64,000 nucleotides of DNA from Neisseria leonii (GTDB lineage: Bacteria; Pseudomonadota; Gammaproteobacteria; Burkholderiales; Neisseriaceae): contig NZ_CP145606.1 of assembly GCF_028776105.2 (NCBI RefSeq), forward strand, positions 1,302,001 through 1,366,000, read 5' to 3'. The notes under the pieces were generated by a model. That model worked only from the letters and a program-made list of their open reading frames with translations. It did no database searches and was not told the DNA's origin. This document shows positions 20,127 through 22,477 of the stretch, in pieces (within the stretch, counting starts at the first letter, position 1; each line of letters begins with the position of its first letter). Made by a program: the position numbers and the translations under genes.

Positions 20127-20155
20127 TTTAAATGATAATAATTATCTATTATAAT
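20127..20155 (+). promoter_or_regulatory. Fur box and promoter of the colicin-like operon
   Basis: TGATAATAATTATC (20133-20146) is the same 14 bases as in the small-RNA promoter at 2073-2086. TATAAT is at 20150-20155, with TTTAAA 17 bases upstream as a poor -35. Iron-loaded Fur would sit across the promoter, so expression should rise on iron starvation. Confidence 0.75.
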
Positions 20156-20229
20156 CAACCAACCGCTGCTGCGGCCAATATGCGGCAGCGGATATTTGCA
20201 AAAACCATATTCAAAGGAGAAACTGATTC

Positions 20230-20583
20230 ATGACCAATCTTTGCAGCAAGGACAACTTCGCCGGCGGAATCGCCAAAAACGATTCCGGCCGGGACTGCGC
20301 CGATAGGGACAATTCGTTTTCCGGCACAGGCCGGTCGGATTCCGCACCGGACAAATCCCATGACCGTAACGGGGTTCAGAATATCCATCTGACTGAGACA
20401 AAGATAACCTACGGCAAGATACAAAACATCGAATTGGCTCCCGTTTCCGTCTCAGCCGGCCGCCCTTTCCGCCTGATATATGACGGTAAATCCGGCAATC
20501 GCCCAGATGCAGATGCCTTGAACGCAACCGGCACCGCAGCTCCAAATCACGCCCCGCCGCCCCGTCCGCACCTCCTTCCCTGA
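20230..20583 (+). pseudogene. N-terminal part of a colicin-like protein, before a frameshift
   Basis: 117 codons from an ATG with a strong ribosome site (AAGGAGA, 20214-20220). The N-terminus is rich in Gly, Ser, Asp and Asn (FSGTGRSDSAPDKSHDRNG), as in the translocation domains of colicins, followed by a more ordered ELAPVSVSAGRPFRLIYDG stretch. The frame ends at TGA 20583 after a Pro/Ala run. The next frame (0, one base back) is open from 20490 and reads straight into the pore-forming part. I therefore read the two as one gene of about 540 codons with a one-base loss in the C-rich stretch 20551-20564. Alternatives are a sequencing error, phase variation or true two-gene coding. Confidence 0.6.
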
Positions 20584-21860
20584 GACCGGGATTCGGCATT
20601 ATCGGAAATCATGCCGCCTACATCGATGCGGCTGCCCGCAACCCGCACAAGACCCTGATGAAGCAGCTCGAACAACTGAAAAGCCAGGCATCGGCCAAAC
20701 ACAATCTGGCTTCGGCACTCTCGCACAACATCATGGCTTTTGAAGAAGGCCATATCTATGACGAACGCAAAGCATTCTATGCCGCCAACCGCGAAGCCTT
20801 AAACGAAGCAGTAGAAAAACTGCGTGCCGATACGGCGGAATTGACGCAGAAATACGGCGAAACCGCCGGCAAACTACATGCGCTCGAAGGCATCACCAAA
20901 ATCACAGGTGCGATAGGCGACCTGGCCGATGCCTACGAACTCGGCAGCCGTATCAAACAGGCCTGTCAGGACGGCAATTGGGACCCCGTTGCCGGAATGA
21001 TTGCCAAAATCGCCGCAACCGACGCAACAATCAGCGGCAGTGCCGCCATTGCCAGAATGCTGGGAATGGCACTGCTGGGAGTCAGTGCTCCTGCCGGTGT
21101 GCTTACTGCCCTTACTATCGGCACAAGCGTCTTACTGACATTTATTGCCATCAATACTTTTATTGACTCATTGGACAAAGAACTTTCCACCTCCGGCCTG
21201 TTGGATTTCGGCAGCAATACCTTTCCATATTCGGATTTGGTCGTATTCGGCAACCATCAATACACCGGCCATGTCAAACTGACAGCCGACAACATTACTC
21301 TGATCGGCCGGCAACAATTTCAAACACTGGAAATCGACAGCAACACCCTGACCGTTATCGGCAATATCGACGCATCGGCGCATCTGAAGATCAACAGCCC
21401 GAAAATCGAGATCATCGACAATCGGGATATTCTGGAAAAAATCATGCAACAATCCGAAGCCGGGATGCCCGGTTCCGAAGCCGGACAGACATCAGACAGC
21501 CCGCCTGCCGCAGAAAGCACAACCGGATCCGGTACGGCACCGCAAGCCGCTGCACATCCGCCATCCGATCCCGATCCGCAGATCGATTATGCCTACTTGA
21601 ACGCGGCAGCCGCCCGGTTCAATATGTCGCCGCAAGACTATCTCGATTCGCTGATCAGAACGGAGATTGACTGGGAAAGCCTGCCCGATCCGCGTTTGGC
21701 CGATGAAATCATGGAACGGAATGCGCGCGAATTGGACCGTATCTTCGGCAGCCCTACTTTGGAAACGCCCGCCCCGTTACCCGAAGAACAACCCCGCTAT
21801 CCCGACGCATTCACCAATACCGTTTATCCGTATGATGACGCAGGAAATGTATGGGCATAA
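20583..21860 (+). CDS. Colicin-like pore-forming bacteriocin, main part
   Basis: 400 aa from the first ATG in frame (20658), but that ATG has no ribosome site. The frame is open upstream and reads PGFGIIGNHAAYID before it, so translation probably joins from the 20230 start. Residues 1-75 (from 20658) are charged helices. DGNWDP (105-110) followed by a long hydrophobic hairpin (about 127-170) ending FIDSLDKEL resembles the colicin pore domain (xGxWxP ... hydrophobic hairpin ... YID). Unlike classical colicins, about 225 residues follow: a beta-rich stretch (190-255), a Pro/Ser/Ala linker (270-308) and an acidic C-terminus. Base composition is lower in GC than the neighbours. Killing activity is inferred. 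Confidence 0.62.
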   Translation, partial: RPGFGIIGNHAAYIDAAARNPHKTLMKQLEQLKSQASAKHNLASALSHNIMAFEEGHIYDERKAFYAANREALNEAVEKLRADTAELTQKYGETAGKLHALEGITKITGAIGDLADAYELGSRIKQACQDGNWDPVAGMIAKIAATDATISGSAAIARMLGMALLGVSAPAGVLTALTIGTSVLLTFIAINTFIDSLDKELSTSGLLDFGSNTFPYSDLVVFGNHQYTGHVKLTADNITLIGRQQFQTLEIDSNTLTVIGNIDASAHLKINSPKIEIIDNRDILEKIMQQSEAGMPGSEAGQTSDSPPAAESTTGSGTAPQAAAHPPSDPDPQIDYAYLNAAAARFNMSPQDYLDSLIRTEIDWESLPDPRLADEIMERNARELDRIFGSPTLETPAPLPEEQPRYPDAFTNTVYPYDDAGNVWA

Positions 21861-21867
21861 CCATCAA

Positions 21868-21894
21868 AGCCGTCTGAAAACAGTTCAGACGGCT
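21868..21894. terminator. Inverted DUS pair between colicin-like gene and immunity gene
   Basis: AGCCGTCTGAA and TTCAGACGGCT around AACAG. It could attenuate read-through from the Fur-controlled promoter into the immunity gene. It also marks the islet with local uptake sequences. Confidence 0.7.
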
Positions 21895-21910
21895 CCGGAG
21901 CTTAAATATC

Positions 21911-22432
21911 ATGAACAGAACCAAAATTGAAGAATATACTGTCTATTCCATATTAATCTTACCCGCCGTATTGTTTATTTTTATACCGGCACACCCGACA
22001 GGCAGTTTCGATCTCGCCCTCAACCGCTTTATCGATGATTATCTACTGGGAAACGGATATTTTCTGCCTTCCAATTATCCCTTTGCCGCCAAAGTCATCA
22101 ACAATTTCTCTGTTGTCCTTGCCGTTATCTCGGGCGCGTTTATGGGATTTTGGCGGAGGAACGATCTCGTCATACCGCTTCCGAAAAATATCCGAAAAGC
22201 CAACCTGATTCTCTTATGCCTTGGGCTTTGGGCGTTCTGGTTCAGCCTGTACCGGCAAGAATTTTCCATCTTTAAAGGTAGAAACTTTATGGCGACAGAA
22301 TCTTTTCATAATACCCCCCACTTATTCCTGGCTCTGCTCAGCTCAAAAACAATATGTATTTATGCAGGATTGAGGTTTCCCATTACTTTCTCCCTGTATT
22401 TTCTCGGGAAAACCAATATCAAAAGAAAATAA
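21911..22432 (+). CDS. Colicin A/N-type immunity protein
   Basis: 173 aa with four hydrophobic segments (about 12-28, 60-80, 98-115, 135-165) and short charged loops, ending in the basic tail NIKRK. Length, helix layout and local motifs match the immunity proteins of pore-forming colicins A, B and N: SNYPFAAKV before helix 2, GRNFMATESF before helix 4 and a Pro-Thr pair near the end. Such proteins sit in the inner membrane and block the cognate pore. GGAG at 21897-21900 is the ribosome site. AT-rich compared with flanking genes, suggesting transfer. Same strand as the toxin, whereas pore-colicin immunity genes usually face the other way. Confidence 0.65.
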   Translation: MNRTKIEEYTVYSILILPAVLFIFIPAHPTGSFDLALNRFIDDYLLGNGYFLPSNYPFAAKVINNFSVVLAVISGAFMGFWRRNDLVIPLPKNIRKANLILLCLGLWAFWFSLYRQEFSIFKGRNFMATESFHNTPHLFLALLSSKTICIYAGLRFPITFSLYFLGKTNIKRK

Positions 22433-22449: not shown

Positions 22450-22477
22450 AGGCCGTCTGAAAACAGTTCAGACGGCC
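22450..22477. terminator. Inverted DUS pair after the immunity gene
   Basis: AGGCCGTCTGAA and TTCAGACGGCC around AACAG. It lies between the immunity gene and the convergent araC-type gene. Confidence 0.75.

What the first reader, a model, noticed from the sequence alone, without database searches (positions are those of the whole stretch)
20127..22432. Fur-controlled colicin-like toxin and immunity pair in a Neisseriaceae chromosome
Seen: a Fur-box promoter, a protein with a colicin-type DGNWDP plus long hydrophobic hairpin ending FIDSLDKEL, and a four-helix neighbour with colicin A/N immunity motifs, all in lower-GC DNA. Known: pore-forming colicins pair with such inner-membrane immunity proteins, and some (for example Ia) are induced by iron starvation. 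Inference: this is a narrow-spectrum bacteriocin that exploits iron-starvation receptors in related bacteria. I am not aware of a described colicin family in Neisseriaceae.
Basis: partly seen in the sequence, partly recalled or inferred. Interest (0 to 1): 0.87.

Follow-up and report, generated by a model that had tools for sequence, protein, structure and literature searches.

The report
Neisseria colicin-like toxin and immunity genes
A small gene pair in a Neisseria chromosome, probably switched on by iron shortage, encodes a broken copy of what looks like a pore-forming bacterial toxin that would enter rival cells by imitating their own iron receptors, plus the protein that would protect the maker; intact relatives exist in other Neisseria.

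Summary
The 400-aa frame (20658-21860) carries a domain homologous to pore-forming colicins: hhalign probability 95.5, E 1.4e-8; family profiles pick colicins and pyocin S5 out of the PDB. The 173-aa neighbour is a small membrane protein. In 46 Neisseria genomes both genes occur in the same five, side by side. A Fur-box-like site sits in the best promoter-like match.

(1) Here the toxin gene is split: its N-terminal part lies in another frame (20230-20583). Four of five genome copies are split. (2) One class of relatives has an N-terminal look-alike of the TonB box of Neisseria iron receptors, so import is probably TonB-dependent; a second class lacks it. (3) The pore domain is not C-terminal: a beta-rich region and a proline-rich tail follow; its hydrophobic hairpin is far more variable than its flanks.

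A match of the immunity protein to known colicin-immunity families was not found. No killing was shown. New variant of a known kind; seven paper searches on Neisseria listed no description.

The parts
20127..20155 (+). sigma-70-like promoter TTTAAA-17-TATAAT with a Fur-box-like site (20128-20146, TTAAATGATAATAATTATC) overlapping it
   Evidence: 10 of 12, best of six matches in the region; 15 of 19; 2 of 363 control upstreams reach 14 or more, one of them being this same site
20230..20583 (+). N-terminal ORF of the split toxin gene (117 aa): presumed import module, ribosome-binding site before it
   Evidence: frame relation to the C-ORF
20428..20463 (+). TonB-box-like 12-mer IELAPVSVSAGR (residues 67-78 of the N-ORF)
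   Evidence: score 9.7; 3 of 381 control genes score as high; corresponding stretch in four relatives scores 16 or more, 0 of 381 controls
20490..20583 (+). stretch open in both frames: the frame break lies here
20658..21860 (+). C-terminal ORF of the split toxin gene (400 aa; frame open from 20490)
20691..21176 (+). colicin-type pore-forming domain
   Evidence: alignment to a PF01024 protein (score 97, best of 380 controls 64)
20991..21215 (+). hypervariable segment with the hydrophobic hairpin (hydrophobic segments 21048-21164)
   Evidence: mean identity 0.44-0.57 here against 0.75-0.92 over the 135 residues before it and 0.78-0.85 in the 45 after it
21234..21416 (+). beta-rich region after the pore domain
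   Evidence: strands E217-E277, local pLDDT about 60-75 in an otherwise poor model
21417..21857 (+). low-complexity proline-rich C-terminal tail with a YPD/YAD motif near its end
21869..21893 (.). inverted pair of DNA uptake sequences (hairpin) between toxin and immunity
21911..22432 (+). immunity gene (173 aa, four predicted transmembrane segments with the looser setting)
22452..22476 (.). inverted pair of DNA uptake sequences (hairpin) after the immunity gene

Best explanation
The locus is an iron-regulated toxin-immunity cassette of a lineage of pore-forming, colicin-like bacteriocins found so far only in Neisseria. In intact members with a TonB box the flexible N-terminus would bind an outer-membrane iron receptor of a rival Neisseria and offer a look-alike of that receptor's TonB box to TonB; TonB would pull the protein in, and the colicin-type domain would insert its hydrophobic hairpin in the inner membrane and depolarise the cell. 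The membrane protein encoded next door would sit in the producer's inner membrane and block the hairpin, which would explain why the hairpin is the fast-changing part of the core. Fur repression would link production to iron starvation, when the receptors are displayed. Shown here by computation: homology of the pore domain, pairing and adjacency of the two genes, TonB-box resemblance, Fur-like site, hairpin variability, frame break in this copy. Inferred: receptor use, TonB import, killing, immunity, iron induction. In this genome the toxin gene is most likely inactive or yields separate pieces, and the immunity gene is kept.
For: Pore domain: profile-profile match to three PF01024 proteins, probability 95.5, E 1.4e-8 over 79 columns (window residues 62-152 of the frame, ahead of the hairpin); the window protein alone against one of them, E 1e-6 over residues 62-197, Smith-Waterman 97 against a maximum of 64 in 380 control genes and 58 in 300 shuffles; family profile against the PDB: pyocin S5 0.0075, colicin Ib 0.0079, colicin A 0.57, colicin S4 1.8 as the top 4 of 5 hits; a second profile: colicin Ib 2.8e-5, colicin A 0.0029 over residues 25-196 of 204, pyocin S5 0.0033, then S4 and N, 5 of 6 hits; P0019 exceeds the PF01024 cut-off (23.7 against 23.4), 1 of 10 proteins scanned. 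Pairing: toxin in 5 of 83 Neisseriaceae genomes, all among the 46 Neisseria; immunity in the same 5 of 46, downstream and on the same strand in all five. TonB box: 4 relatives score 16 or more, 0 of 381 controls do. Fur-like site of 14 or more at 3 of 5 loci, against 2 of 363 controls. Hairpin hypervariability. No T6SS sheath gene in 4 of the 5 genomes with the toxin.
Against: The window protein itself is far below the PF01024 cut-off (11 against 23.4), and 4 of 10 relatives scanned have no PF01024 match at E up to 1; the G051 member does not stand out from controls in single-sequence comparison (15, 23 and 29 of 380 controls score as high). The AlphaFold2 model is unusable (pLDDT 42) and finds no fold match. 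The window's own TonB-box score is modest and below every receptor (9.7; receptors 12.2-26.5; 3 of 381 controls as high), and stretches in the beta-rich region of some relatives score up to 12.8 with the same profile. Class II N-termini (5 of 5 tested) have no TonB box in their first 120 residues, and the class II locus L007 has no Fur-like site (11 of 19). The pore domain is followed by about 220 residues, unlike colicins. The immunity proteins have no colicin-immunity Pfam match; 3 of 9 have a weak match to a membrane acyltransferase family (PF01757, best E 2.8e-4). Four of five genome copies of the toxin are frame-broken. No release gene was recognised near the locus.
Confidence: 0.74

Rival explanations
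1. A contact-dependent polymorphic effector (T6SS, CDI or Maf type) with a colicin-like ionophore domain, not a diffusible bacteriocin.
For: Neisseria carries such systems; CDI ionophores also have polymorphic pore regions matched to membrane immunity proteins (PMC11630599, passages); several immunity-like genes in a row in G050 and G051 resemble polymorphic toxin islands; weak NCBIfam hit to T6SS effector family BTH_I2691, E 0.45.
Against: T6SS sheath gene (PF05943) absent from 4 of 5 toxin-bearing genomes, one of them only 85% complete; no ORF above 711 aa between 14000 and 30000 of the window, and no secretion gene recognised by eye around the four relatives; TonB-box N-termini fit receptor-mediated import.
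Confidence: 0.13
2. For the copy in this window (compatible with the best explanation for the family): a decayed remnant. The cassette came by transformation, the toxin is dead, and only the immunity gene is kept as protection against neighbours.
For: Frame break in 4 of 5 genome copies while each of the five genomes keeps at least one open immunity gene; a toxin tail remnant without immunity in G028; the assembly thought to be this genome is a hybrid Illumina plus Nanopore one (PMC11316581, passages), so a base-calling slip is less likely; a separate Neisseria record, P0002, starts within seven residues of the start of the second ORF of G028.
Against: Says nothing about what the intact family does: 8 full-length members exist in the protein database. 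All four breaks have the same frame relation, which is also what single-base under-calls would give. In G050 the immunity gene nearest the toxin is itself broken.
Confidence: 0.6
3. The break is used: programmed frameshifting or a two-piece protein, keeping the import module and the pore module apart.
For: Same frame relation in 4 of 4 broken loci; P0002 suggests that the break of G028 recurs in a relative; the two ORFs of G028 overlap by 10 bases.
Against: The breaks lie at different places in the protein, one in the first part of the pore domain (L010); no common slippery site was found by eye; G014 and 8 database members are in one frame.
Confidence: 0.05

Closest known systems
Pyocin S5 and the pore-forming colicins (colicin Ib, A, S4, N)
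   Same: Homologous pore domain; N-terminal disordered TonB box (for PyoS5 residues 6-14, PMC7064778 passages); iron receptor as entry (FptA for PyoS5); small membrane immunity protein
   Different: Pore domain is C-terminal in PyoS5, here about 220 residues follow; PyoS5's kinked helical bundle domains were not looked for here; its immunity protein has three TM helices, here four are predicted; the immunity proteins were not compared directly
PmnH/ImnH of Pseudomonas (PMC5358913, passages)
   Same: Modular bacteriocin with a colicin N-type pore module, entry by a TonB-dependent iron transporter, downstream same-strand membrane immunity gene of similar size (182-184 aa)
   Different: PmnH has a colicin M domain as well; no sequence relation of the immunity proteins was tested here
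CDI ionophore toxins with CdiI (PMC11630599, passages)
   Same: Polymorphic membrane-active region matched to polymorphic membrane immunity proteins
   Different: CdiI are 72-100 residues with two helices and the toxin is the tip of a large exoprotein; here a stand-alone protein and a 173-aa protein with four predicted TM segments
Meningocins and gonocins (PMC9263626, passages)
   Same: Reported Neisseria killing activities, one partly purified at 47-48 kDa and called suggestive of a colicin type
   Different: The genes have not been identified according to that review; I did not test named meningococcal or gonococcal genomes
Gonococcal Nap peptides (PMC11798529, abstract)
   Same: Bacteriocin-like genes in Neisseria, horizontally acquired
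   Different: Small cationic peptides for autolysis, no detectable antimicrobial activity

Membership tests
Pore-forming colicin domain (Pfam PF01024) | score above the curated cut-off | tested here: not met
   window protein 11.0 against 23.4 bits; of 10 relatives scanned one, P0019, passes with 23.7
Pore-forming colicin domain (Pfam PF01024) | homology by profile comparison | tested here: met
   hhalign probability 95.5, E 1.4e-8; PDB profile hits to colicins and pyocin S5; controls
Pore-forming colicin domain (Pfam PF01024) | hydrophobic helical hairpin near the domain's C-terminus | tested here: met
   two hydrophobic segments, residues 155-173 and 175-193, aligned with the hairpin region of a PF01024 protein
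Pore-forming colicin domain (Pfam PF01024) | ten-helix bundle fold | tested here: inconclusive
   AlphaFold2 pLDDT 42, no fold match
Colicin/S-pyocin architecture | pore domain at the C-terminus | tested here: not met
   homology ends at residue 197 of the 424-residue frame; relatives likewise continue
TonB-dependent (group B) bacteriocins | N-terminal TonB box | tested here: met
   class I: 4 proteins at 16 or more, 0 of 381 controls; window itself only 9.7, 3 of 381 controls as high. Not met in 5 of 5 class II N-termini
TonB-dependent (group B) bacteriocins | killing that needs tonB and an outer-membrane receptor | not testable with these tools
   needs experiment
A-type colicin immunity (PF03857) | Pfam match | tested here: not met
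   0 of 9 members at E up to 5; members of PF03857 could not be found for a profile comparison (nothing rang, controls included)
A-type colicin immunity (PF03857) | four transmembrane helices | tested here: met
   hydropathy: 7 of 7 proteins with the looser setting; the stricter setting shows two in the window protein, four in 4 relatives and three in 2; the poor AlphaFold2 model has five helices
T6SS effector family BTH_I2691 | NCBIfam cut-off and a T6SS in the genome | tested here: not met
   9.0 against 150 bits; PF05943 absent from G000
CDI (CdiA) ionophore systems | toxin is the C-terminal tip of a large exoprotein | tested here: not met
   no ORF above 711 aa between 14000 and 30000; intact members are 624-742 aa stand-alone proteins

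The most novel reading that the evidence does not exclude
Neisseria has its own lineage of colicin-like bacteriocins: iron-regulated, with exchangeable import modules (one imitating the TonB box of Neisseria iron receptors, one of unknown route), a pore domain in the middle of the protein with a hypervariable hairpin, and arrays of matching membrane immunity genes, spread as a small cassette among chromosomal sites. It would be the first genetically defined bacteriocin family of the genus and a candidate for the kind of protein behind the old colicin-sized meningocin reports.
Probability: 0.5. Interest if true: 0.85.

Novelty: new variant of a known kind. Interest (0 to 1): 0.72.

Why it matters
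[quoted passage not shown] This family gives concrete genes, an entry route that can be tested (TonB), a predicted immunity rule (hairpin against membrane partner), and a pore-forming domain in an unusual position. If right, it puts Neisseria iron receptors on the list of bacteriocin doors.

Tried and rejected
Plasmid records and two scans of GTDB r220 genome contigs gave no relative; the family was found only in the whole-genome set and the protein database. A class-level search of 369 genomes drawn from a larger group found only the window's own genome, so no wider spread is claimed. PF01024 over 83 Neisseriaceae genomes found at E up to 0.01 only the G050 member of this same family, below cut-off. 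The structure route failed: models at pLDDT 58 and 42; the rows shown by their fold searches include no colicin or immunity protein and I draw nothing from that. A search for the class I N-terminal module alone, taken from P0015, in 46 genomes found nothing, but it had no positive control and does not show absence. PF03857 found nothing in 398 genomes or in the named control genomes, so the immunity comparison could not be made. PADLOC: no hit for four proteins. Of the four PF01024 loci I dropped L062 (below cut-off, a stop inside) before building the colicin alignment. In one search the upstream of one receptor, L016, was read on the wrong side; one search corrected it. Considered and dropped: a resemblance of class II N-termini (GW...W) to a colicin TolB-binding stretch, which rests on recall only; a common slippery site at the breaks (none seen by eye). 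The consensus for Fur and for the DNA uptake sequence is recalled, not from a call.
Full report
What is there. The region 20127-22432 holds, on the + strand, a promoter with a Fur-like site, a first ORF of 117 aa (20230-20583) with a ribosome-binding site, a second ORF of 400 aa (20658-21860) in another frame, and a 173-aa ORF (21911-22432). The two frames are both open between 20490 and 20583. The GC content is 0.581 for the window, 0.571 in the 117-aa ORF, 0.533 in the 400-aa ORF and 0.42 in the 173-aa ORF. Neighbours are a proline-racemase-family gene upstream and an AraC-type regulator with a PAS domain downstream (Pfam).

Which genome. The window lies in a single-contig genome of 2,206,085 bases. 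The immunity protein is 94% identical to one of Neisseria leonii, whose longest contig has 2,321,692 bases. The N. leonii paper gives 2.21, 2.32 and 2.23 Mb for its strains 3986T, 51.81 and JF 2415, all hybrid Illumina plus Nanopore R10.4 assemblies (PMC11316581, passages). By size the window's genome would be strain 3986T; this is inference. If so, a sequencing slip is a poor explanation of the frame break.

The toxin is a colicin-type pore former. No library scan of the window protein alone is significant (Pfam PF01024 E 0.37). The family makes the case. Nine of 12 members match PF01024 at E up to 5; of 10 proteins scanned in detail six match at E up to 1, four do not, and one, P0019 (E 4.9e-5), is above the cut-off. 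A profile of the 12 finds in the PDB five sequences at E up to 10, of which the first four are pyocin S5, colicin Ib, colicin A and colicin S4. A profile of five class II rows, four of which hold the pore domain, finds colicin Ib at 2.8e-5, colicin A at 0.0029 over residues 25-196 of 204, pyocin S5 at 0.0033, then S4 and N, with one phage protein among the six hits. Against three PF01024 proteins of other Pseudomonadota, hhalign gives probability 95.5 and E 1.4e-8 over 79 columns ahead of the hairpin, and the window protein alone gives E 1e-6 over residues 62-197, hairpin included. As a control, the window protein scores 97, 103 and 67 against the three (L059, L060, L061), where 380 other genes of the same genome reach at most 64, 73 and 65, and 300 shuffles at most 58, 58 and 51. 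Twelve family members were tried: the G051 member stood out in none of the three comparisons (15, 23, 29 of 380 controls as high), and G050 and G014 each failed to beat one control in one comparison; the other nine beat all controls each time. The control genes were picked by a simple longest-ORF rule.

The neighbour is its partner. In 83 Neisseriaceae genomes the toxin is found in five, all among the 46 Neisseria. The immunity profile finds exactly the same five of 46. If genomes were independent the chance of that would be 1 in 1,370,754 (my arithmetic); they are related, so this is only a guide. The genes are adjacent and on the same strand in all five, and G050 and G051 carry several immunity-like genes in a row; in G050 the one nearest the toxin is broken and the next two are open. 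G028 also has a lone toxin tail without an immunity gene. A further Neisseria, Dent CA1/247, has both, with locus tags LVJ85_00070 and LVJ85_00085. The immunity proteins share four hydrophobic segments in all seven proteins tested with the looser setting; with the stricter one the window protein shows two, four relatives four and two relatives three. None of nine matches a colicin immunity family in Pfam; three have a weak match to membrane acyltransferases, best E 2.8e-4. PMC7064778 (passages) gives four TM helices for A-type and three for E1-type immunity proteins; by number this is A-type, by homology it is not shown.

How it may enter. I read the N-termini of the TonB-dependent receptors of the same genome: 11 plug domains were found, ten boxes chosen by eye were used for a profile, the eleventh was read later and not used. 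The receptors score 12.2-26.5 when left out one at a time; the best of 381 control genes scores 11.9. Of 14 toxin N-termini tested over their first 120 residues, four (P0003, P0004, P0005, L011) score 16 or more; the window scores 9.7 with three controls as high, L010 10.0 with two, P0015, P0017 and P0019 9.0 with four; five (L007, L008, P0014, P0018, P0020) score 5.3 or less with 36 or more controls as high. Several of these are near copies, so they count as about four independent lineages. The same profile scores up to 12.8 in the beta-rich region of some relatives, so position matters. There are thus two classes of N-terminus; the class II route is unknown. PyoS5 has its TonB box in the disordered N-terminus and binds TonB1 there (PMC7064778, passages).

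Iron. The site at 20128-20146 overlaps the best promoter-like match. Against the recalled consensus the loci score 15 (window), 15 (G050), 14 (G028), 13 (G051) and 11 (G014); of 363 control upstream regions two reach 14 or more, one being the same site read from the divergent gene. Upstream of the receptors six of 11 reach 14 or more in a longer stretch of 520 bases (L016 corrected).

Which part changes. Among eight close relatives mean identity is 0.75-0.92 over residues 1-135 of the frame, 0.44-0.57 in 136-210, which hold the hydrophobic hairpin, and 0.78-0.85 in 211-255; the tail beyond is poorly aligned and also variable (0.41-0.85). This is what a lock between toxin hairpin and membrane immunity protein would give; [quoted passage not shown]

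What is odd. The pore homology ends at residue 197, yet the frame goes on for about 220 residues: a beta-rich stretch and a low-complexity, proline-rich tail. In PyoS5 the pore domain is C-terminal (PMC7064778, passages), and in colicins too (recalled). The role of this tail (release, receptor binding, stability) is open. No lysis or export gene was recognised nearby.

The break. The toxin gene is split in four of five genome copies (window, G028, G050, G051) and whole in G014; each of the five genomes has at least one open immunity gene. All four breaks have the same frame relation, which chance would give one time in eight. They lie at different places; that in G050 is in the first part of the pore domain, in a genome of 85% completeness, and in G051 the TonB box lies after the break. 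P0002, from another Neisseria, starts within seven residues of the start of the second ORF of G028, and no toxin protein of the second N. leonii strain came up beside its immunity protein; both suggest real breaks. Eight full-length members exist in the database. I therefore think the copy here is most likely inactive.

Spread. The five loci lie in different chromosomal neighbourhoods (most neighbours recognised by eye). Inverted pairs of uptake sequences stand between toxin and immunity, and after the last immunity gene, in the window, G028 and G051; G014 has none in 18 kb by the 10-base pattern. Uptake by natural transformation is a plausible way of spread; this is inference.

Literature. 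Eight paper searches were made. Seven of them concern Neisseria bacteriocins, colicin-like proteins, TonB or N. leonii; concerns pyocin S5. No title or abstract start in the listings showed this family, but the listings were cut (25 of 42, 7 of 8, 15 of 21, 15 of 19 and 15 of 72 papers) and only open-licence papers are held. [quoted passage not shown] a 2026 paper on N. subflava still cites only the old gonocin and meningocin reports in the passages seen (PMC13375697).

Noticed in passing
L009:8376-8987: G028 has a second, lone copy of the toxin's beta-rich region and tail, without pore domain and without a detected immunity gene: a remnant or a store for recombination.
   Followed up: partly
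L010:6121-7950; L011:9218-10923: Several immunity-like genes after one toxin (three in G051; two open and one broken in G050), as in polymorphic toxin islands.
   Followed up: partly
L059:486-1832; L060:1474-2775: Two PF01024 proteins of other Pseudomonadota begin with LPPIIITP / LPPIIVTP, which look like TonB boxes by eye.
   Followed up: no
window:13722-19976: Minus-strand cluster with a proline-racemase-family gene (Pfam) and, by eye, an FAD oxidase, a dihydrodipicolinate-synthase-like and an aldehyde dehydrogenase gene; perhaps a hydroxyproline breakdown cluster. The racemase gene shares the Fur-like intergenic site with the toxin.
   Followed up: no
P0003; L011:7598-7747: The N-terminus of one class I subgroup starts with a Cys-rich CCPYC..C stretch before the TonB box; role unknown.
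   Followed up: no
L007: No copy of the usual 10-base DNA uptake sequence in the 18 kb around the G014 locus; perhaps another uptake dialect.
   Followed up: no
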